Below, piece by piece: positions 31,182 through 64,000 of a DNA stretch of 64,000 bases; position 1 is the stretch's first letter; each line of letters opens with the position of its first letter. The notes beneath the pieces were generated by a model. It saw only the letters and a list, made by a program, of their open reading frames with translations, did not search any database and was not told the DNA's origin. The position numbers and the translations under genes are program-made. This DNA is from a virus: the IMG/VR virus record IMGVR_UViG_3300030110_003801, positions 64,734 to 128,733 of that record; one strand, written 5' to 3'.

Positions 31182-32417
31182 ATGGAAATGTTAACTGTAA
31201 ACAACGTGTGGATGATGGTCTGCACAGGATTGGTGTTCTTTATGCACCTTGGCTTTTCTTTCTTAGAGATTGGATTAACTCGCCAAAAAAACACTATCAA
31301 CATCTTGTTCAAGAATATCTTCATCATCTGTATGGGACTTCTTGTTTACTACATTGGTGGTTTTAATTTAATGTACCCCGGATTTGAAGAAGGGGACTTA
31401 GGTATTCTTAAGTTCGCAGGATTCGGAATCGAGGCTCCTGCAAATGGAATGACTGCCGAGTATGCTTCAGGAGGATATACTTGGTGGACAGACTTCTTGT
31501 TCCAAGGTATGTTCGCAGCAACAGCAGCAACTATTGTAAGTGGAGCTGTGGCTGAACGTATCAAACTAACTAGCTTTATGCTTTTTAGTATTATTTACGT
31601 AGGTCTAGTTTACCCAATAGTAGGCTCTTGGAAATGGGGAGGAGGATTTCTTGACAAATTAGGATTCTACGACTTTGCCGGAAGTACTCTTGTTCACTCA
31701 GTAGGTGGATGGGCAGCACTAGTATCTGTATGGTTATTAGGTCCTAGAATCGGAAAGTATCTTAAAGTAAACGGAAAGTCTTTCCCTATTTTAGGACACA
31801 ACATCCCCTTTGCTACAGCAGGAGTATTAATCTTGTGGCTAGGTTGGTTTGGATTTAACGGTGGTTCAGTACTTAGTGCAGACCCTGCGTTAACCTCTTT
31901 AACTCTTGTCACCACTTGCCTTGCGGCAGCAGCAGGAGGCTTTGGAGCTGCTATTACATCTTATCTTAAGAATAAGACATTAGATTTAACTATGTTTCTT
32001 AATGGAATTTTAGGAGGTCTAGTTGCTATTACGGCAGGTGCTGACCAAATGTCTCCAAATGAATCTGTTGTAGTTGGACTTATAGGAGGTATTATAGTCG
32101 TGTTTGTCGTTTCTCTTTTAGACAAGGCTAAACTAGACGACCCTGTAGGAGCAATAGCAGTACATTTAGGTTGTGGAATATGGGGAACATTAGCGGTAGG
32201 TATTTTTGGAAACCTAGCTAGTGTGAGCCAATTCATATCACAATTCTTTGGAGTTGTAACAATAGCGGGATTCTGTCTAGTAACTTCTTTTATAATTCTG
32301 TTTACCATTAAAAAAACTATGGGACTTAGAGTTAGCAAAAGTGAAGAGCTAGAAGGACTAGATAGTTCAGAACATGGAATGTCATCTTATCCCGACTTCC
32401 GACTTAATCAACATTAA
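31182..32417 (+). CDS. amt: Ammonium transporter (Amt/AmtB)
   Basis: A 411-residue inner-membrane protein of about 11 membrane segments, the normal length. The conserved features are present: GLTRQKN after the first segment, FQGMFAATAATIVSGAVAER (107-126), D164 and the first pore His H172 in AGSTLVHSVGG, and the second pore His H328 in DDPVGAIAVHLGCGIWG. The C-terminal tail keeps the EHGMSSYPDF element that couples to PII. It should conduct ammonium inward as a trimer. Nothing indicates decay, so it is probably functional. It sits between glnK and a barrel gene, the order often seen in Bacteroidota chromosomes, suggesting capture of the host cassette. Confidence 0.95.
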   Translation: MEMLTVNNVWMMVCTGLVFFMHLGFSFLEIGLTRQKNTINILFKNIFIICMGLLVYYIGGFNLMYPGFEEGDLGILKFAGFGIEAPANGMTAEYASGGYTWWTDFLFQGMFAATAATIVSGAVAERIKLTSFMLFSIIYVGLVYPIVGSWKWGGGFLDKLGFYDFAGSTLVHSVGGWAALVSVWLLGPRIGKYLKVNGKSFPILGHNIPFATAGVLILWLGWFGFNGGSVLSADPALTSLTLVTTCLAAAAGGFGAAITSYLKNKTLDLTMFLNGILGGLVAITAGADQMSPNESVVVGLIGGIIVVFVVSLLDKAKLDDPVGAIAVHLGCGIWGTLAVGIFGNLASVSQFISQFFGVVTIAGFCLVTSFIILFTIKKTMGLRVSKSEELEGLDSSEHGMSSYPDFRLNQH

Positions 32418-32456: not shown

Positions 32457-33434
32457 ATGAAAAAGATATTTACAATTTTATTGGCACTAAGTGCATCACT
32501 TATTACAGCTCAAGATAGCTTGAAATCAAACCTTTCATTAGAAGGAAGCGCTGATATTTATTACAGAAAAAACCTTAGTACAAACAGCACAGGTGTTGCT
32601 CCTGCTACATCTTTTGCTAACCTAAATGGTTTTAGCTTAGGTATGTTTAATCTTATCGGTTCTTATGACACTAAGAATACAGGATTTGTAGCCGACTTAG
32701 TATTTGGACCTAGAGGAGAAGATGCTGTTTTCTTATCGTCAGGAAACTCTAGCATTGTCAATCAGCTTTACGCTTATTGGGATGTAAGCGATAACCTAAC
32801 TTTAACAATGGGTAACTTCAATACCTTCTTAGGCTATGAGGTTATTAGCCCCGCAGGAAACTTTAACTACTCAACTTCTTACATGTTTAGTTATGGTCCA
32901 TTCTCCCATAGTGGTCTGAAAGCCGACTTCAACCTATCTGAAGATTTTACAGGTATGGTTGCTGTCTTAAATGCTACCGATGAAACAGAGTTTAACTCCA
33001 CCAACTACAATACGCTAGGTGGTCAGTTGGCTTACAAGAGTACGTACTTAAATGCTATATACGGTAAGCAAGACTCAAGCTCTGAGGCTACTTTTCAAAT
33101 TGACTTGACAGCAGGTTATGACTTGTCAGAAAAGTTCTATCTTGGAGTGAACACTACATACAATGAAACAGAAGGTAGTGGTTTTTACGGGGTAGCCTTA
33201 TATCCTCAATATGCAATTCGCAAATTGACAACAGGATTAAGAACAGAGTATTTTAGCGAGTTTACTTCTTCCGGAAATACAGACGTTATCGGATTAACAG
33301 CTACGCTTGATTATTCAGTAGAGAATTTAAACCTAAAATTAGAGTATAGGCTTGATAAGGCTGATGATAAAATCTTTGAAACAAAGGATAATTTATCTAG
33401 CATAGTTCTAGCAGCGGTATATTCTTTTAATTAA
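32457..33434 (+). CDS. Outer-membrane beta-barrel protein (porin-like)
   Basis: A 325-residue exported protein. The first 19 residues (MKKIFTILLALSASLITAQ) are a signal peptide with cleavage after Ala-Gln or before Asp. The rest consists of alternating short strands with aromatic ends (LNGFSLGMFNLIGSY, NLTLTMGNFNTFLGYEV, YLGVNTTYNETEGSGFYG), and the protein ends in a strand finishing in Phe-Asn, as outer-membrane barrels do. Porins of this kind often lie beside amt in Bacteroidota and would let ammonium or other small solutes reach the periplasm. The substrate is inferred from the neighbours. Confidence 0.8.
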   Translation: MKKIFTILLALSASLITAQDSLKSNLSLEGSADIYYRKNLSTNSTGVAPATSFANLNGFSLGMFNLIGSYDTKNTGFVADLVFGPRGEDAVFLSSGNSSIVNQLYAYWDVSDNLTLTMGNFNTFLGYEVISPAGNFNYSTSYMFSYGPFSHSGLKADFNLSEDFTGMVAVLNATDETEFNSTNYNTLGGQLAYKSTYLNAIYGKQDSSSEATFQIDLTAGYDLSEKFYLGVNTTYNETEGSGFYGVALYPQYAIRKLTTGLRTEYFSEFTSSGNTDVIGLTATLDYSVENLNLKLEYRLDKADDKIFETKDNLSSIVLAAVYSFN

Positions 33435-52880: not shown

Positions 52881-53554
52881 TATCGTTGTCGTTGTCGTTG
52901 TTGTTGTTGCTGTTCTTGTTGTTTACCGTCATTATCCAAATCTTCAGGAATACCTAAAATTCTTCGCCCAACTTCCTCAACCATCTGAAGAAGTTCCATT
53001 ATTAGATTTGAACTAATAGGGTACTCATCAGTGTCCTTTAATTTAGAAGTGTTTTCTATAGCTACATATACATTAACTCTACCCCCTCGTTTGAAATTAT
53101 CAGTACCACCAAATATGGTGAGTTTGTCTGCGGTTCTATAATATACAATATTTTCTCTTGAGGGTTTTCCAAACTTAAGTCTTTTTAGACGGTTTAATTC
53201 ATTTGGTTTTATTCTAATTATAGTGTTTCCTGCCTGAGTTTCAACCCTGTACAAACCTACATCGTTGCCGTCTATAACTATTGGTTGGGAAGGAAGTGTT
53301 ACAGTAAATTTAGAGTCACTACATCCGTCAGGACAATCTTTGTCAATTTCTTCTATAGGTACACACTCGTATAAACTCAAAAACGACTCAATAGTTACGG
53401 AACCGTTCTCTTTAAATTTATCGTTAATTAATTTTGAGCGACTACTATCTAGCCAAGCTCTAATAAGCCTTCGGTCAATTTGAAAATCGTCAGAAACGTT
53501 AGATTGAGTTAGCCGAAGCTCTATGTTTGATATTAAGTCTATAATTTTTGCCAT
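52880..53554 (-). CDS. Ring/adaptor-type neck protein
   Basis: A 224-residue protein with a helical N-terminus (LISNIELRLTQSNVSDDFQID, RLIRAWLDSSRSKLI), a beta middle and a Gln/Arg-only tail (EQQQQQQRQRQR) from a CAA/CGA repeat. The N-terminal pattern 'DD..id.RLI..wl...R..LI' is one I know from ring or adaptor proteins of crAss-like and flavobacterial phages. It shares one base with the RusA gene's stop region. Confidence 0.65.
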   Translation of the reverse strand: MAKIIDLISNIELRLTQSNVSDDFQIDRRLIRAWLDSSRSKLINDKFKENGSVTIESFLSLYECVPIEEIDKDCPDGCSDSKFTVTLPSQPIVIDGNDVGLYRVETQAGNTIIRIKPNELNRLKRLKFGKPSRENIVYYRTADKLTIFGGTDNFKRGGRVNVYVAIENTSKLKDTDEYPISSNLIMELLQMVEEVGRRILGIPEDLDNDGKQQEQQQQQRQRQR

Positions 53555-53898
53555 TACACTTCTATTATTCTAACAACGTATGTATTAAACTCTAAACTCT
53601 CGTCAGGCTCTATAAGAATGCCTCGATTAAATTTTTTATTGTCGTCTTTGATAACCCCTGAATCTTTTAGGGCATCAAGAAAGAACTTCAACGTTACATT
53701 ATCGGTATCAATCTTACTGTTAAATCTTACGTGAACCTTAAATCTTTCCATTGGTCGTGGCTTTTGCTCAAGTATTAACCCTTTAAAAAGCGCTCTTCTT
53801 TGTTCTTTTAAGCCTTGATTAGCCCTCCAATGTTTGTTTCTTAAATCATTAGTAGAAGTCCATTTACCTTTGTAAACGACCTCTATAATATTATTCAT
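53554..53898 (-). CDS. rusA: RusA-type Holliday junction resolvase
   Basis: A 114-residue protein of the RusA family. The key part is FNSKIDTDNVTLKFFLDALKD with D64-T-D66-N67 and K71, then GVIKDDNKKF with D85 and D86; these carboxylates and the lysine form the RusA metal site. It resolves four-way junctions and branched DNA before packaging. Its place among late neck genes, not early recombination genes, fits a role in clearing branches for the terminase. It overlaps the upstream gene by eight bases. Confidence 0.87.
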   Translation of the reverse strand: MNNIIEVVYKGKWTSTNDLRNKHWRANQGLKEQRRALFKGLILEQKPRPMERFKVHVRFNSKIDTDNVTLKFFLDALKDSGVIKDDNKKFNRGILIEPDESLEFNTYVVRIIEV

Positions 53899-54558: not shown

Positions 54559-55731
54559 TTATGCAGAAACTTTAATATAGTAATACAACATTAAATAACT
54601 ATCTCTTGTATCAACGGGAATATTCGATGTAGTATTTACATCTGTAGACTGTCCTGAAATAGGAACCTCAATAGTAGCGTCTATAGATGTTCCTGCACTG
54701 TCTCCCGACCTAGCGACAGCGACGCTAGTACCATCAGAACTAACAGTCTCAAGCGTGGCGTTAACAGTGAAGTTTACATCGTGTGCGTGTTGCGGTAATT
54801 GATTTGCAATTAAAGTAACGTTTTCTGCCCCCCCTGTTTGACCAATAGCTCCATAAGAAGGGTCTCCTGATTTATAACCTCTCTGAACTTTTCCTCCTAA
54901 ATCAGGAAGGTTGAAGGTCGTACTTCCATCTCCTGCTCCATAAGATGTTCCTATAAGGGTGAATAGAGCTGAGTATGTAGTTCTACTTATCGCTCCTCCA
55001 TCACAAATAAGCCAATTAGCAGAAGGAGGTACACCCGTAGACAAAGTTACAACTTCCCCTAAAAACCTATTATCGGCAGGGTTGACCGCTGCAATAGCTG
55101 CTGCGTTAGTCGCTATGTTGGTTGTATTAGTCGCTATGTTGGTTGTATTAGTTGCTAGACTAGCTGTGTTTGTAGCTATGTTAGCTGTGTTTGTAGCTAA
55201 ACTCCCTTGTAAAGAAACAATGTTCCCCTGTATAGCCGTTATGTCTGATTGAATAGAAGACATATCGGGAACTCCTGCGGAAACACTATTAATATTAGCC
55301 TGAAGCGTGTCAAGCTCTGTAGATAAAAAAGAAATAAACTCAGTAGAAAGCTCCACCGTGTAATCGTTATTATCTAGTGAGCTAGGATTAGCAACAGCAG
55401 TGACAAGTTTTGCCGTTAGTGATTTTATAGTCTGTGTCTTATCCTTTACAGTAGGCAAGTTTTTTATCTGTGCCGCATAAGTAAATCCGTCATTGGGAGG
55501 CGTGTTGTTTTTGGCATTACTCCCGCTTGCTGTTTTAACAAGACCTTGGTAGGATTCGCTAGCAGTATCTTCTTTGTTTAGGATAAAAGTTATAGAGTCA
55601 AACAGCTCCTTAAAAGTTTGCTCAGTAGGACTATCTTTATCACGAAATCTAGTACCCGGAACTTTAGTCCCGTCCGCATTTATTATTTGCGTTTTTTCTC
55701 TAAAATAACTCTTCTCTTTTCTACTTGCCAT
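54559..55731 (-). CDS. Tail fibre with collar domain
   Basis: A 390-residue fibre protein. The middle (about 160-220) is a trimeric coiled-coil-type repeat (NTANIATNTASLATN, ATNTTNIATN) encoded by 21-base repeats at about 55110-55200. Residues about 222-300 are a phage tail-collar domain: WLICDGGAISRTTYSALF, GAGDGSTTFNLPDLGGKV, and QLPQHAHDV. The C-terminus ends YLMLYYYIKVSA. This plan matches receptor-binding short fibres. The ring of fibre genes continues upstream. Confidence 0.85.
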   Translation of the reverse strand: MASRKEKSYFREKTQIINADGTKVPGTRFRDKDSPTEQTFKELFDSITFILNKEDTASESYQGLVKTASGSNAKNNTPPNDGFTYAAQIKNLPTVKDKTQTIKSLTAKLVTAVANPSSLDNNDYTVELSTEFISFLSTELDTLQANINSVSAGVPDMSSIQSDITAIQGNIVSLQGSLATNTANIATNTASLATNTTNIATNTTNIATNAAAIAAVNPADNRFLGEVVTLSTGVPPSANWLICDGGAISRTTYSALFTLIGTSYGAGDGSTTFNLPDLGGKVQRGYKSGDPSYGAIGQTGGAENVTLIANQLPQHAHDVNFTVNATLETVSSDGTSVAVARSGDSAGTSIDATIEVPISGQSTDVNTTSNIPVDTRDSYLMLYYYIKVSA

Positions 55732-55742
55732 TTTATTAAATT

Positions 55743-56372
55743 TTAATATTCTACTACTTTTTCTCTAATGTCAGAAGCCATGTTTGCGTGATGAAAAACT
55801 ATGTTAGGAACAACACAAAAAGAGTTACCCCTAATTTTTTGAAAGCTTAGAGTCATTTCATCAATAGGACACTCGCTTCTCTCTAACTCTTCTAAATAAA
55901 GGTCGTACATGGTCTCGTTTACAGCATAAGCTTGACAACACCAAGCACCCCTTAATCTATGAACAACTCCGCTGTACCATTTTGTAGGAACCTCGTGAGT
56001 TGAGTTTAAATGAAAAAAGTCAAAATCTTTCGGAAGGTGTTTAACAGACTCCTTGTAGATAGAACCAAAGTTTTGTATAAAGTCTACATCGTCTTCCATT
56101 ATAAAAACATTTTTCCAACCTTCTTTTTTTGCTTTTTCAATCAATCTTTTTGTTGTGTAAACCAATCCCGCAGCATTCCTATTCCAACCTTGGTACGGTT
56201 TACCATTAAATTTAGCGAATTTACTTCTTCCTGAAGTTGCCTTCCAAAATTCGTAATGTTCACCTTCAATCATTCCTAGTTTTTCCTCTAGTCGTTTCTT
56301 AGTTGTAGAGCGTCTGTCTTTAGACTTTGGTAAGTTTATGACAAATACTCTATCAAAGTTTTCTTGTATCAT
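55743..56372 (-). CDS. GT25-family glycosyltransferase
   Basis: A 209-residue enzyme of glycosyltransferase family 25 (LOS/LPS and procollagen galactosyltransferase type). The start FDRVFVINLPKSKDRR is the family's first strand, followed by a kinship region with FWKATSGR, then the metal site E93-D94-D95 in FIMEDDVDF, and AWCCQAYAVN and CPIDEMTL farther on. It lies between two fibre genes, so it may add sugars to the fibres or to the host surface. The donor and acceptor cannot be read. Confidence 0.85.
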   Translation of the reverse strand: MIQENFDRVFVINLPKSKDRRSTTKKRLEEKLGMIEGEHYEFWKATSGRSKFAKFNGKPYQGWNRNAAGLVYTTKRLIEKAKKEGWKNVFIMEDDVDFIQNFGSIYKESVKHLPKDFDFFHLNSTHEVPTKWYSGVVHRLRGAWCCQAYAVNETMYDLYLEELERSECPIDEMTLSFQKIRGNSFCVVPNIVFHHANMASDIREKVVEY

Positions 56373-56388
56373 ATTTATGTTTCATTTG

Positions 56389-58353
56389 TTACGTATTCAA
56401 GTCAACTGTTGGGTCTGAGCCTGTTACGTTGTTGCTTATAAAGTTAATCAACAATGGGTATCCATCGTGAGTCCACTGAAAAGCTTTGTTTGTTGGTGGA
56501 CCAAATAACCTGTATTCAGCATCAGTATTCCCGGCAGCAGTACCACCTCCATCAGCTCTTTGCGCACCACTACCTCCTGCTGACGTATCAAAAAACGAAC
56601 CTGCTCTTTGATAACCAATAGCTATTTGGTTAGTGTTGTTATTTGTTTGACTAGCAGAGCTAGTAAGTCTTTTACCGTCGTTAGTTAACACACTACCTCC
56701 TGCTTGGTCAGGATTTAATGTTCCTACGAACAACTGAGGAACATACCAATCATCCTCTGTTATTGTAGCTGAAGTTTGATTAGGAACAATAAAAGAAGCT
56801 CCGTGCAAAACTGACTCAAAAGTTTTATTTCTAATACCTCTAACAAAATCACACCCTACTAATCTCCAAGAGTTGCTTGCCGTATCAACAAAAGTTAAAT
56901 TAGCACACTCATCTCCAAAGGCGTTTCCTCTTCCACCTACATTTTCAAAAGAAATATTCTCACAACTTGTTCCAAAAGTATTGTTATCCATTTTAGAATA
57001 TGGAGAAACGTAAGATGTACCAAACCCAAGGGCTTCATCCCTGTCTCCCAACATGTTTATTAATGTACAACTTTGAGCAAATCTATTGTTACTACCTCCG
57101 TAAATCTGAATAGAAGAACAGTTAGACTTAAAACTATTATTACTTCCTTTAAAAACAGTTATGTTTGCGTTGTTTTTACCTAATACGTTATAGCTAGCGT
57201 CTCTCACAAAGTAAATAGCTGAAGAATCACACCCTACTTCATTGTTTGAAGAATTGGAAATAGAAACTATTCTCTCACTGTTCGCTCCTACTTCTACGTC
57301 ATCGGCTGAAATACCTAAGTAGTGCCTAACTAAATAACCGAAATTATTGCTAGTAATACTAAATCCATATATGTTTTCACAAGACCCATTTATTACCACC
57401 GCTGTACTAGATTTTACAATAGCCTTAGAAGAGCTTGCCCCTATTTTAACATCACTAGACGCATTAACAGTTGTTTTGGAGACAGACTGTCCAATAGAAA
57501 CTCCTGAAGAGTTTACAAGTAAAACATCTGTAGTATCTTTTTGTATGATTACATTCTTAGATAAAGCATCAATAGATTGATGATAAGCTATTGACGACCC
57601 GTCGTGAGCTATAGTCGTATCTGCTATTTGAATAGAGACATCTCCATACATATCTTCATCAATCTGAGTTATAGCGCTCAAGGTATCTGCGTTTGCTTCA
57701 GCAGAAGATACAATATTAGTCGTTGTAGAGTTTACAAAATACCAACCTGCCGAAACAGTAGAGCCTGCTACATTATAGTAAATAATATCTCCCTTGTTTT
57801 TTGCAACAGGAGTAGTTACCTCAACACCAACCTTACTTAATCCGTACCTAGCAACATAGTTATTTCTAAAGTCAAAAAACGCTTCAATATTTTTATCAAC
57901 ATCTCTCCTGTACTTTATAAAACCACTTCTTGATGTAGCGGTAGTAGATTCGGTGTCATCCGTAAAATCGTAAACTATAATATCTTTAGGATGGTTTAGA
58001 GACCTAGCAGACCCAAAAAAACTATTATTGTTTTTAGCAACAATAGCTAATTGCTCCGTAATGGCTGTGTAACCCGGAACAGAAGTATTTAACGTAGGTG
58101 TAGATACTGAACCAACTAAAGAAACGGTTTCATAAGGAAAAATATATATAGTTCCCGGTTCTAAACTTGAAGAACCAACAAGAGTTGCTAAATCAGCATA
58201 ACTAGCCATGATTTCTACCTTACCACAAAGAGTATCTATAGTATCTTCAAAAGAAGAACGGATGTCTTCTGCCGAAACTTCAAAAGTCGTATTGGTAAAA
58301 ATCTTGCCATCTATTGATGTTTTTAACGCACTTTTACTTCCTAAATCTGCCAT
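56389..58353 (-). CDS. Tail fibre with beta-helix
   Basis: A 654-residue fibre protein. The N-terminal 100 residues look like an attachment domain. Residues about 260-510 are short repeats with Asn/Ser/Gly turns (SSNNEVGCDS, GKNNANITVFKGSNN, GGSNNRFAQSC), the signature of a right-handed parallel beta-helix, common in host-binding or polysaccharide-cutting fibres. No catalytic residues can be picked out. The GT25 gene follows. Confidence 0.75.
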   Translation of the reverse strand: MADLGSKSALKTSIDGKIFTNTTFEVSAEDIRSSFEDTIDTLCGKVEIMASYADLATLVGSSSLEPGTIYIFPYETVSLVGSVSTPTLNTSVPGYTAITEQLAIVAKNNNSFFGSARSLNHPKDIIVYDFTDDTESTTATSRSGFIKYRRDVDKNIEAFFDFRNNYVARYGLSKVGVEVTTPVAKNKGDIIYYNVAGSTVSAGWYFVNSTTTNIVSSAEANADTLSAITQIDEDMYGDVSIQIADTTIAHDGSSIAYHQSIDALSKNVIIQKDTTDVLLVNSSGVSIGQSVSKTTVNASSDVKIGASSSKAIVKSSTAVVINGSCENIYGFSITSNNFGYLVRHYLGISADDVEVGANSERIVSISNSSNNEVGCDSSAIYFVRDASYNVLGKNNANITVFKGSNNSFKSNCSSIQIYGGSNNRFAQSCTLINMLGDRDEALGFGTSYVSPYSKMDNNTFGTSCENISFENVGGRGNAFGDECANLTFVDTASNSWRLVGCDFVRGIRNKTFESVLHGASFIVPNQTSATITEDDWYVPQLFVGTLNPDQAGGSVLTNDGKRLTSSASQTNNNTNQIAIGYQRAGSFFDTSAGGSGAQRADGGGTAAGNTDAEYRLFGPPTNKAFQWTHDGYPLLINFISNNVTGSDPTVDLNT

Positions 58354-58364
58354 TTTTTTGTTTT

Positions 58365-58739
58365 TTATGTTGTCTGTTCTGTAACATTATTTGTTGTAAA
58401 CTCATTAGTTGTGAACTCTCCATAAGGAGGGTCTATGTTGCTTATTGTAATAAAAAAATCACTAGGAGAGCCTATTGTTATTGGCGCTGTTTCAGGTGGC
58501 TCCACTATTGGTTCTGTTGCAGGATTTGGCTGTATTTCAATACCTGAGCAAGGACTTTGTAAATATCCCAACTCAAGAATAACCCAATTAGAGTCATCGA
58601 TTAAACACTTAGCCTTGTCCCAATCCCCTAATCCGTCTTGGATAGCCGCTTTTAAAACATAACCAACCAATCTTCTTTCAAGAATAGCAATCTTATCATC
58701 AAATTCTTTTTGAGTATATGTTTTATCTTCTTTTCCCAT
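58365..58739 (-). CDS. Small tail-associated protein
   Basis: A 124-residue protein. The start ATG at 58739 overlaps the upstream stop in the TAATG arrangement, so it is preferred to the ATG four codons earlier. The first 50 residues are helical (FDDKIAILERRLVGYVLKAA), the rest is Pro/Thr-rich. It sits between two fibre-type genes and could be a fibre joint or chaperone (inference). Confidence 0.6.
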   Translation of the reverse strand: MGKEDKTYTQKEFDDKIAILERRLVGYVLKAAIQDGLGDWDKAKCLIDDSNWVILELGYLQSPCSGIEIQPNPATEPIVEPPETAPITIGSPSDFFITISNIDPPYGEFTTNEFTTNNVTEQTT

Positions 58740-59941
58740 TAGCAACCACAATTACACTTTAAAGGTTCACAAATAGTATGTCCTAAATTAACTACTTGCT
58801 GAATCTCAGCTTCTTCGTAGTTATTCTTTTTCATTACGGATATAGCTTTGATTACGTTTTGAATCGTTGCCGCATCATCATAAACATTCTTACTGTTCTT
58901 ACAACACTCCTTCTTGCTTAAAAGACTTACAAAACAACATTCAAAATTATCTATATCATAACACCAAGAGAAAAAGTCATTTTCGTCTACATTGTAATCA
59001 CATCCGGAAACTACGGTCAAAACAGACGTATATTCACCACCCTTCTCAATAGCTTTATAAACAACCTCATTTGACGCTGTTTCGCTAGGTATAGACATAG
59101 AGGATGCGTTTGCTGTTTTATTTGAATAAGTAAAAGCTCCTTCCCAAGCTAGCGACGTATCTGTACTCACTGTAAAAGGAACTCCTGCTTCTTTTGCGGT
59201 AAGGGTTACAACTCCACTAGCGCTTGTAGCTGAAATGTATTTGTAAAACAAGCTTGTTGTATCTGTAACAGCGTTAATAGCTTTAGCTACTCCCCTAGCT
59301 ACACACTCAGCAGTGTTATCACTCTCAACAGTATATTCAACAGTGTTTCCACAAAAACTTAACGAAAGTTTTTCACCCTCCTTATACTCTGCGCTTGTAA
59401 ATGAAATTTCATCAACTTGTTTAACAGCTCCTAAATCTAAAGGACTTCCATCGGGACCATATAGAGACATGTTTCTAGCGCTAACTAAAGGAGCTGTAGA
59501 TATAGTTCCTGTAACAGGCGTTATGCCCGCTGTTGAATCAATATCCGTTGAGCCTCCCGACCAAGAACCGTCGTAAGCATAAACGCTAACGTACCAATCT
59601 TTAAAACTTGTTCCGTCAGGTTTTATAAGTTTTGCTTTTATACCCGAGTTTTCGTTGTTTATTTTATCAATAAACGCTAGGTACTGAACTTCAGGATTGA
59701 TGATGTTTCCTGCTCCATCTGTTGATACGCTTAAGGTAACAGTTGTGAAATTATAAGAATCAAAATCAAAATTAGAAAAATTAAATGTTGTGTTTGCCGT
59801 CGGAAGACCACCTGAATAGTCGTGAAACCTGAATTCAGCAGAAGGAAAAAACCCTTCTTTTACGTAGTCAGTTTCATCAGGAATAGTTATGTTTGGACAG
59901 CTTTCTACTGAACTCCCTAGTGTTAAATTTAATACTCCCAT
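58739..59941 (-). CDS. Tail fibre or structural protein
   Basis: A 400-residue protein counted from the ATG at 59941 (MGVLNLTLGSSVES); a start six codons earlier is possible but less likely. The N-terminal 300 residues are beta-rich with many Thr/Ser/Gly. The C-terminal 80 residues are acidic and hold many Cys (ECCFVSLLSKKECCKNS, CNCGC end). It probably forms part of the tail tip or fibre. Unknown family. Confidence 0.6.
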   Translation of the reverse strand: MGVLNLTLGSSVESCPNITIPDETDYVKEGFFPSAEFRFHDYSGGLPTANTTFNFSNFDFDSYNFTTVTLSVSTDGAGNIINPEVQYLAFIDKINNENSGIKAKLIKPDGTSFKDWYVSVYAYDGSWSGGSTDIDSTAGITPVTGTISTAPLVSARNMSLYGPDGSPLDLGAVKQVDEISFTSAEYKEGEKLSLSFCGNTVEYTVESDNTAECVARGVAKAINAVTDTTSLFYKYISATSASGVVTLTAKEAGVPFTVSTDTSLAWEGAFTYSNKTANASSMSIPSETASNEVVYKAIEKGGEYTSVLTVVSGCDYNVDENDFFSWCYDIDNFECCFVSLLSKKECCKNSKNVYDDAATIQNVIKAISVMKKNNYEEAEIQQVVNLGHTICEPLKCNCGC

Positions 59942-60011
59942 ATCGTAATAAAAATACAAATAATATCAAGTTAATTGCAAGAGAACTAACAGATACTTTG
60001 ATTAGTTTAAA

Positions 60012-62346: not shown

Positions 62347-62550
62347 TTAATTATTTTCTTTTTGTTCTAACCACTCTACGTACTCAGCGGGAGGTGTATC
62401 ATACCACTTCCAACCATCTTTTTCAATCTTATTGTCTACTGATAAAGTAGTACCATCGGGAAATGAAATCTTATTTCCTGTAGTCCATATATCAAATTCT
62501 TCTTCGTATTTATAAAACATAATCTTTTTAATTAACTTACTACTGTCCAA
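62347..62550 (-). CDS. Small hypothetical protein
   Basis: A 67-residue protein with several Trp and Lys residues (FDIWTTGNKISFPDGTTL, WKWYDTPPAEYVEWLEQ). It overlaps the start region of the adhesin gene's end by 19 bases and is in the same operon. Unknown. Confidence 0.5.
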   Translation of the reverse strand: MDSSKLIKKIMFYKYEEEFDIWTTGNKISFPDGTTLSVDNKIEKDGWKWYDTPPAEYVEWLEQKENN

Positions 62551-64000
62551 CCTTTATTAGTAGCTATTAATAAATCACTTGCAGTTAAATCTGCTGAACC
62601 CGGATTTGTATTAACATAAATTGTCTGTGCGCCATTTGCCGTTCCTAAGTTGTTAAAAATAGTAACTATCGCATCTTGCTTCAAACTACAATTTTGATAA
62701 CTGTGTCTTGATGTTATTCCTGTAACTAATGATTCTCTTAAATTATTTGCAGATATTGCAAATTGATACCCGTTAGGATATGAAGTCACACCGGATAAGT
62801 CATAAGCGGGAATAGACGCAATATTTTTCGCACCATTAACCATAGCCCTACAACTTGTTAGTGTTCCACTTATTGGTGGAGCAACTTTTAAACCATAACA
62901 ATTATAAAAAGTATTATAAGTATCTGTAATATTTCCTGTGTTATTTAAAGTAGGAAAATCCTCCAATATATAACAAGAAGCAAATAGACCTTTAATAGTA
63001 GTAACATTAGTACAGTCAAAAGATGCAGGAGTTTTTTCCAACTTAGTACAACCTTGAAATATCTCTGTTAAATTTGTAGCATTTGATGTAACATTAAGAA
63101 AACTAGCATCTCTTAAATGACTTCCTTCAAACATTGATTCAAAGTTTTGTGTGCTTGACGTGTCTACCCAAGTAAAATCACATTGAGTTTTTATTGCTGC
63201 AAAACACCATAGAAAACTAGTCACACCTGATGTATCAAAAGGCTTTATTTCTTTTATATTAACACAATTCCTAAATGTATAACTCATAGTAGTAAGAACA
63301 CCTGTGCCTGCTGTCATGTTTACTACTTCCAAATCACTGCAACCGTCAAAACAAAGGTGCATACTTGTTACGTCAGGTAAACTTCCGTCAAATGTTTTAA
63401 GTCTTGTGTTGGAATATGTTGCTGTCATACTTGTAATTCCTGCATAACTAGATATGGGATTATTTGTTAAACTCCTACAAGTGTTAAATGTATATGTTAA
63501 ATTTGTTGTAGATGAAACATCCATTGGTGGTATATAATCTATTGAAAAACAATTATAATACATATACCCCACGTTGGTCGCACTACTTGTGTCCAATGTT
63601 GGCACTTGGATTAAAGTATAACAATTTTGAAAAACATTAGCAAATGTTGTAACTGCCGATGTATTCCATTGATAAATTTTCTTTAAACTCGTACAACTCG
63701 TAAAAGCATTATTCACATTTGTTAGGTTTGGTGCTGTACCAACATATTCAAACTCTTCAAGAGCAATCCACGTCCAACAAGCTAAAGACATACTTGTAAA
63801 AGCTGTACCTGCCATTTTCACGCTTAAAACATTTGAATTTCCAAATCCTCTATATACATCAGATGAATGTGCGTATGGTGAAGATGGTCTAATGAACGAG
63901 GTTAGTGTGGAACCTGATTGAGCTGTAACAGTTAGTATTACTTGCCTATAGCCTCCGCTTGTTAATGAACTTGAGGGAGCATTTGCCCAATCATAGTCAT
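62532..64000 (-). CDS. BspA-like leucine-rich-repeat adhesin (cut by window edge)
   Basis: At least 489 residues; the frame stays open from the right window edge, where the visible part begins DYDWANAPSSSLTSGGYRQ. Residues from about 60 on are tandem repeats of about 20-25 residues with the pattern F.NC..L..(I/V)P..D(T/V)S..TN, typical of DUF285/BspA-type leucine-rich repeats. These are found in Bacteroidota surface adhesins and in some phage fibres. It is likely a host-binding tail protein. The true start lies outside the window; the GTG at 63821 is only an internal codon. Confidence 0.8.
   Translation of the reverse strand, partial: DYDWANAPSSSLTSGGYRQVILTVTAQSGSTLTSFIRPSSPYAHSSDVYRGFGNSNVLSVKMAGTAFTSMSLACWTWIALEEFEYVGTAPNLTNVNNAFTSCTSLKKIYQWNTSAVTTFANVFQNCYTLIQVPTLDTSSATNVGYMYYNCFSIDYIPPMDVSSTTNLTYTFNTCRSLTNNPISSYAGITSMTATYSNTRLKTFDGSLPDVTSMHLCFDGCSDLEVVNMTAGTGVLTTMSYTFRNCVNIKEIKPFDTSGVTSFLWCFAAIKTQCDFTWVDTSSTQNFESMFEGSHLRDASFLNVTSNATNLTEIFQGCTKLEKTPASFDCTNVTTIKGLFASCYILEDFPTLNNTGNITDTYNTFYNCYGLKVAPPISGTLTSCRAMVNGAKNIASIPAYDLSGVTSYPNGYQFAISANNLRESLVTGITSRHSYQNCSLKQDAIVTIFNNLGTANGAQTIYVNTNPGSADLTASDLLIATNKGWTVVS

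What the first reader, a model, noticed from the sequence alone, without database searches (positions are those of the whole stretch)
55743..56372. A GT25 glycosyltransferase between two fibre genes
The enzyme has an intact metal site and shares the late operon with fibre proteins. It could glycosylate the fibres themselves or change the host surface to block other phages. Fibre glycosylation in phages is little known.
Basis: partly seen in the sequence, partly recalled or inferred. Interest (0 to 1): 0.58.

Follow-up and report, generated by a model that had tools for sequence, protein, structure and literature searches.

The report
Phage fibre gene with its own glycosyltransferase
A crAss-like phage carries, right behind a tail-fibre gene, a sugar-attaching enzyme related to the one that decorates animal collagen, and the same two-gene pair turns up in unrelated phages, which suggests that these phages put sugars on their own fibres.

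Summary
The ORF at 55743-56372(-) is a GT25 glycosyltransferase (PF01755, 37.3 bits against a cut-off of 24) with an intact EDD motif and a confident GT-A model (pLDDT 94.7). It lies 16 bp behind a beta-helix fibre gene and 11 bp ahead of a tail-collar gene in a crAss-like phage. New here: the fibre plus GT25 pair is a conserved, mobile cassette. In all 10 records of one strongly supported GT25 clade where the upstream gene could be read, it is a gene of the same fibre family, same strand, 1-30 bp away. The clade mixes crAss-like phages with phages that have a T4-type portal. A separate GT25 lineage (L145, L148) sits behind the same fibre family. Other phage GT25s lie in glycan-biosynthesis clusters. 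The nearest solved structures are collagen galactosyltransferase COLGALT1 and mimivirus R655, ahead of a bacterial beta-1,4-galactosyltransferase. The best reading is that the enzyme glycosylates the adjacent fibre before assembly (about 0.6). The main rival, a receptor-modifying enzyme co-inherited with a receptor-binding fibre, is not excluded. Virion glycosylation by phage enzymes is known for mycobacteriophage capsids and tail tubes, so this is a new variant of a known kind.

The parts
55743..56372 (-). GT25-family glycosyltransferase, 209 aa, GT-A fold
56088..56096 (-). codons of the E93-D94-D95 metal-site motif
   Evidence: invariant in 41 aligned sequences; lines up with the EDD of COLGALT1 in the HMMER alignment
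56389..58353 (-). beta-helix fibre protein, 654 aa, proposed acceptor of the sugar; gene ends 16 bp before the GT25 start
57829..58215 (-). N-terminal domain (residues 47-175) shared by the fibre family
57034..57558 (-). predicted parallel beta-helix (residues about 266-440)
   Evidence: AlphaFold2, pLDDT mostly 75-91 in this stretch; weak Foldseek matches to beta-helix lyases, epimerases and tailspikes
54559..55731 (-). tail-collar fibre protein, 390 aa, starts 11 bp after the GT25 stop
   Evidence: PF07484 E 3.1e-19; PHROG tail families
58739..59959 (-). upstream gene of the same strand run, 406 aa; weak match to a tail PHROG
   Evidence: phrog_165 E 8e-6

Best explanation
The gene encodes a soluble, metal-dependent GT-A glycosyltransferase of family GT25. 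It is made together with the fibre in front of it and transfers a hexose, probably galactose or glucose from a host UDP-sugar, onto side chains of that fibre in the cytoplasm before the fibre is assembled. The two genes form a cassette (fibre, then its dedicated glycosyltransferase) that is kept and exchanged as a unit between unrelated tailed phages. Shown: the family, the predicted fold, the motif, the conserved adjacency, its presence in two unrelated phage types, and the correlated divergence of the two genes. Inferred: activity, donor, acceptor residue, and any benefit (fibre stability, altered receptor binding, or shielding).
For: (1) GT25 family and intact motif; model pLDDT 94.7, pTM 0.91. 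(2) Adjacency: in the 12-row GT25 clade with support 100/99, 10 of 10 records whose upstream gene can be read have the fibre-family gene immediately upstream, same strand, gap 1-30 bp (window, L002, L003, L025, L026, L029, L113, L114, L116, L117). L024, which holds the other two rows, is cut 205 bp upstream. L030, outside the clade, has the same arrangement (gap 17). (3) Control: of 79 loci kept in the wide GT25 scan only 7, all in or next to the clade, have the fibre domain. The upstream neighbours of 38 other GT25s match glycosyltransferases, methyltransferases and the like; no tail family is among those listed (20 of 20 Pfam, 25 of 28 PHROG families shown). 0 of 21 bacterial GT25 loci hold the domain. 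(4) Second origin: the L145 and L148 GT25s, rejected as one clade with the rest (p-AU 0.00085), also follow the same fibre family, with 14 bp overlap. (5) Mobility: the clade holds phages with crAss-type portals and phages with T4-type portals; at least 4 changes of background among the labelled rows. (6) GT and fibre distances correlate: Mantel r 0.68 (N-domain) and 0.77 (rest of fibre), p 0.0001, 11 dereplicated pairs. (7) Best solved relatives are COLGALT1 (Z 21.7) and mimivirus R655 (18.8), then a bacterial GT25 (16.8); the same order by profile for the fibre-linked set plus L031 (2.2e-12, 5.4e-9, 1.7e-6).
Against: No glycan, activity or acceptor is shown. Many fibre-family genes have no GT25 next to them (L014, L017, L018-L021, L022, L152-L156), so the fibre fold does not need it. 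Co-inheritance of a receptor-binding fibre with a receptor-modifying enzyme would give the same gene pair. Structural closeness to a protein-modifying GT25 does not prove a protein acceptor; R655's own substrate is unproven (PMC9546862 passages). Residue composition gives only weak hints: Ser 10.4 v 8.4%, p 0.008; N-x-S/T 2.4 v 1.6 per 100, p 0.010; 13 uncorrected tests on related sequences.
Confidence: 0.6

Rival explanations
1. The enzyme modifies the host's surface glycan (LPS, capsule) late in infection, so that progeny or competing phages no longer bind. It stays with the fibre because fibre and receptor modification must match.
For: GT25 is described as an LPS-biosynthesis family; a paper on pelagimyophages reads tail-fibre-linked glycosyltransferases this way (PMC7029224 passages); co-inheritance with a receptor-binding fibre is expected.
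Against: It lacks the companion enzymes that lie directly upstream of other phage GT25s; nearer to COLGALT1 and R655 than to the solved bacterial beta-1,4-galactosyltransferase; no strongly hydrophobic segment (maximum Kyte-Doolittle mean 0.79 over 19 residues); in L003 the pair stands away from that phage's glycan locus.
Confidence: 0.22
2. The protein has become a fibre-assembly factor or virion component and no longer acts as an enzyme; it occupies the place behind the fibre gene where fibre chaperones often lie (recalled).
For: Position and tight spacing; in L114 and L117 the GT25 is fused to an extra C-terminal domain of about 175 aa.
Against: The motif and core residues are invariant across the clade, which an inactive relic would not be expected to keep; the extra domain has no significant match (weak matches to phage structural and hypothetical proteins at E 0.06-5).
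Confidence: 0.08
3. The enzyme glycosylates phage DNA.
For: Weak matches to DNA-glycosyltransferase families (phrog_842 E 0.013; TAGT E 0.047).
Against: Those matches are insignificant; no base-modifying enzyme among the 15 Pfam families found in 33 ORFs outside the tail region; position among virion genes.
Confidence: 0.02

Closest known systems
Human procollagen galactosyltransferase COLGALT1/GLT25D1 (second GT domain, residues about 335-574 of 9evj)
   Same: Closest solved fold (Z 21.7, 200 residues, rmsd 2.6) and among the best profile matches; EDD motif aligned; acts on a fibrous protein
   Different: 18% identity; COLGALT1 acts on hydroxylysine of collagen; no lysyl hydroxylase was seen in the 33 ORFs scanned; acceptor of the phage enzyme unknown
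Mimivirus R655
   Same: Virus-encoded GT25-type enzyme, Z 18.8; proposed to act on collagen-like viral proteins (PMC9546862 passages)
   Different: Eukaryotic giant virus; its activity is untested in that paper (R699, not R655, was assayed)
Mycobacteriophage virion glycosylation (Che8, Corndog, Myrna; Freeman et al. 2023, not read, described in PMC12363180)
   Same: Phage-encoded glycosyltransferases put glycans on virion proteins
   Different: Targets there are capsid and tail tube; here the partner is a fibre, and the enzyme belongs to a fibre-linked GT25 cassette in unrelated phages. Family of the mycobacteriophage enzymes not compared here
Glycosyltransferases in pelagimyophage host-recognition clusters (PMC7029224 passages)
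   Same: Glycosyltransferases among tail-fibre genes of marine phages
   Different: GT8 most represented, several per cluster, read as O-chain modification; no fixed fibre-GT25 pair was described in the passages seen
Bacterial adhesin plus dedicated glycosyltransferase pairs (AIDA-I, TibA; recalled)
   Same: Beta-helix adhesin gene beside a gene for its own cytoplasmic glycosyltransferase
   Different: Autotransporters with heptosyltransferases, a different enzyme family; bacterial, not phage

Membership tests
Glycosyltransferase family 25 (PF01755) | Score above the curated cut-off | tested here: met
   37.3 bits v 24
Glycosyltransferase family 25 (PF01755) | GT-A fold like solved GT25 members | tested here: met
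   Model pLDDT 94.7; COLGALT1, R655 and bacterial GT25 top the list at Z 16.3-21.7, others 13.7 or less
Glycosyltransferase family 25 (PF01755) | Acidic metal-binding motif | tested here: met
   E93-D94-D95 invariant in 41 rows
Glycosyltransferase family 25 (PF01755) | Transfer of a sugar from a nucleotide donor | not testable with these tools
   needs the purified enzyme
Virion-protein glycosylation system | Glycan found on a virion protein | not testable with these tools
   needs virions or co-expressed fibre
Virion-protein glycosylation system | Glycosyltransferase gene conserved beside a virion gene | tested here: met
   10 of 10 readable records of the clade
crAss-like phages | crAss-type portal and large terminase | tested here: met
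   phrog_6547 E 7e-94 and phrog_6681 E 2e-59; tblastn matches listed include many crAss-like records
Collagen hydroxylysine galactosyltransferases | Acts on hydroxylysine; a lysyl hydroxylase is present | tested here: inconclusive
   No such family among hits for 33 ORFs; the other half of the record and the host were not scanned; residue specificity untested

The most novel reading that the evidence does not exclude
Fibre plus GT25 is a mobile two-gene module that gives unrelated phages (crAss-like and T4-portal types) glycosylated receptor-binding fibres, built by an enzyme line related to the one that glycosylates animal collagen. It would be the phage counterpart of bacterial adhesin-glycosyltransferase pairs, and the association arose at least twice.
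Probability: 0.5. Interest if true: 0.75.

Novelty: new variant of a known kind. Interest (0 to 1): 0.6.

Why it matters
Fibres decide which host a phage binds. If such fibres are routinely glycosylated by a dedicated enzyme, then binding specificity, stability and recombinant production of them depend on a sugar that sequence-based work ignores. The cassette gives a clear list of fibre-enzyme pairs, from crAss-like phages among others, to test in E. coli by co-expression and mass spectrometry.

Tried and rejected
DNA glycosylation: no base-modification family among hits for 33 ORFs. Single-sequence search of the PDB: no match at E up to 1; only profiles found the solved relatives. tblastn of the fibre against phages: no match, so the fibre family was followed by profile. 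First genome-contig scan with A1: no relative; second with A11: 21 bacterial GT25s at 30% identity or less, none with the fibre domain. The fused C-terminal domain of L114/L117 matched nothing significant. Residue composition of paired against unpaired fibres: weak, uncorrected. Fibre model: only the beta-helix is usable, and its PDB matches are generic. L005 and L006 are 100% copies of L003. L118 was treated as a copy of L116 and L149-L151 as copies of L148 on equal ORF coordinates and scores, without formal clustering; none of these copies was counted. Papers: six searches listed no paper on a fibre-GT25 pair; only listings and the passages named in the report were read.

Full report
What is there. 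ORF 55743-56372(-) encodes 209 aa. It passes the Pfam cut-off for Glyco_transf_25 (37.3 v 24 bits) and is the only PF01755 match in the 128,733-base virus record. A single-sequence search of the PDB finds nothing. An AlphaFold2 model with 39 phage sequences has mean pLDDT 94.7 and pTM 0.91. E93-D94-D95 is invariant in 41 aligned phage GT25s.

Neighbourhood. The gene lies in a run of same-strand genes: a 654-aa protein ends 16 bp before it, and a 390-aa tail-collar protein (PF07484, 3.1e-19) starts 11 bp after it. Large terminase and portal match crAss-like families and records. A near relative (L002) keeps the same order with GT25 at 87% identity. In L025 the order fibre, GT25, collar, RusA-like gene is kept with GT25 at 47%.

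The pair is conserved. The first hint was the 636-kb phage LR756504 (L003): its GT25 (34-39% identical) lies 15 bp behind a gene that shares the N-terminal domain of the window's fibre (33% over 123 aa, E 4e-12), with no same-strand gene within 2.7 kb downstream. Scans of IMG/VR followed; 264 relatives, best 80 kept, 79 loci; 7 of 79 have the fibre domain, all of them the closest GT25s or L030. One search added L113, L114, L116, L117 and a copy (L118), all with the fibre gene directly upstream. In a tree of 47 GT25s the window falls in a clade of 12 (100/99). In the 10 records where the upstream gene can be read it is the fibre gene, gap 1-30 bp; L024 (two tandem GT25s, two rows) is cut by the contig end (gaps). 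L030, outside the clade, has it too (gap 17). L031 instead follows a tail-collar type gene (gap 6). L012, the second GT25 of LR756504, lies in what looks like a sugar locus.

Other phage GT25s are different. The upstream neighbours of 38 other GT25s match glycosyltransferases (GT2, GT11, GT25 and others), FkbM-type and other methyltransferases and a sulfotransferase; no tail family is among the families listed (20 of 20 Pfam; 25 of 28 PHROG shown). Only the one gene upstream was scanned this way.

Fibre first. Scans with fibre alignments (26 loci, many copies) give, after grouping near-identical loci by eye, about 13 groups. Six have a GT25 directly behind the fibre (L002, L003, L025, L026, L145, L148). 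Seven do not (L014, L017, L018-L021, L022, L152, L153/L156, L154/L155). The queries hold GT25-linked fibres, so this share is biased upward. L145 and L148 have a distant GT25 (PF01755 2e-8 and 5e-8) that overlaps the fibre gene by 14 bp; one clade with the other fibre-linked GT25s is rejected (p-AU 0.00085), which suggests a second origin of the association. L145 and L148 sit on a long branch, and the group was named after a first tree had been seen, so that test may carry some error.

Both phage types. crAss-type portal: the records of the window, L002, L025, L026, L029, L113, L116 and L118. T4-type portal: L003, L024, L114, L117, L145. Three of the 16 records examined, those of L030, L031 and L148, matched neither. 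Both types are interleaved inside the GT25 clade (at least 4 changes among the labelled rows). For example L114 (T4 portal) and L116 (crAss portal) share 70% in GT25 and 57% in the fibre N-domain. L114 and L117 come from different metagenomes with the same layout around the pair, which speaks against a chimeric contig. Distances of GT25 and fibre correlate across 11 dereplicated pairs: r 0.68 for the fibre N-domain, 0.77 for the rest, p 0.0001.

What the enzyme resembles. VIA-align ranks COLGALT1 (9evj, Z 21.7), mimivirus R655 (9crz, 18.8) and a bacterial beta-1,4-galactosyltransferase of the family (8xkd, 16.8), then other GT-A enzymes at 13.7 or less. Profile searches give the same order for all phage GT25s and for the fibre-linked set plus L031 (2.2e-12, 5.4e-9, 1.7e-6). 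R655 is only a putative collagen galactosyltransferase (PMC9546862 passages). Fibres of L113 and L116 carry collagen-like repeats at their N-terminus (PF01391, E 6e-5 and 3e-6; only L116 reaches the cut-off) and match tail-fibre PHROGs. L114 and L117 fuse the GT25 to about 175 further residues without significant relatives.

Mechanism. The most economical reading is a dedicated fibre glycosyltransferase. Against it stand the absence of any biochemical evidence and the rival that a receptor-binding fibre and a receptor-modifying enzyme travel together. The absence of glycan-pathway neighbours and the structural affinity tilt the balance without settling it.

Known work. PMC12363180 (passages) describes mycobacteriophage capsid and tail-tube glycosylation by phage enzymes. 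PMC7029224 (passages) describes glycosyltransferases in pelagimyophage host-recognition clusters, read as O-chain modification. PMC8008677 (passages) reads a structural-region glycosyltransferase as host-surface modification. PMC12691614 (passages) and PMC12619734 (passages) cite the mycobacteriophage work. Passages of PMC11012932 and PMC8402811 were also seen. Freeman et al. 2023 was not held. Six searches listed no paper on a fibre-GT25 pair.

Noticed in passing
whole record G000; window is its second half: The 128.7-kb record seems to hold two crAss-like phage genomes end to end: two portals, two terminases, two primases of low identity. A block near 61.9-64.3 kb recurs as 127.0-128.7 kb plus 1-0.6 kb (86% identical), as if two genomes were joined by assembly.
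   Followed up: partly
window 31182-32417 and 32457-33434, + strand: Genes that fit the ammonium transporter (1.7e-114) and BBP2 porin (3.6e-62) hits; a P-II nitrogen regulator and a Cpn10-like protein occur among the 33 ORFs scanned (not located; the scan lists families, not members). The other half of the record has 91% and 75% identical copies of the first two ORFs.
   Followed up: no
L114:4001-5161, L117:4001-5161: GT25 fused to a C-terminal domain of about 175 aa; only insignificant matches to phage structural and hypothetical proteins.
   Followed up: partly
L012:2459-8677: Second GT25 of phage LR756504 lies in a cluster that looks like sugar biosynthesis (by eye: aminotransferase, acetyltransferase, fucosyltransferase-like genes).
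   Followed up: no
L024:206-1457: Two tandem GT25 genes in one T4-portal phage; one groups with crAss-like L025 and the window, the other with L114/L117.
   Followed up: partly
L014:2911-9680: Four tandem paralogues of the fibre family without a GT25.
   Followed up: no
window 53554-53898, - strand: RusA-like resolvase gene among tail genes; the same place in L002 and L025 by eye.
   Followed up: no
window 62532-63821, - strand: DUF285 repeat protein at the edge of the repeated block.
   Followed up: no
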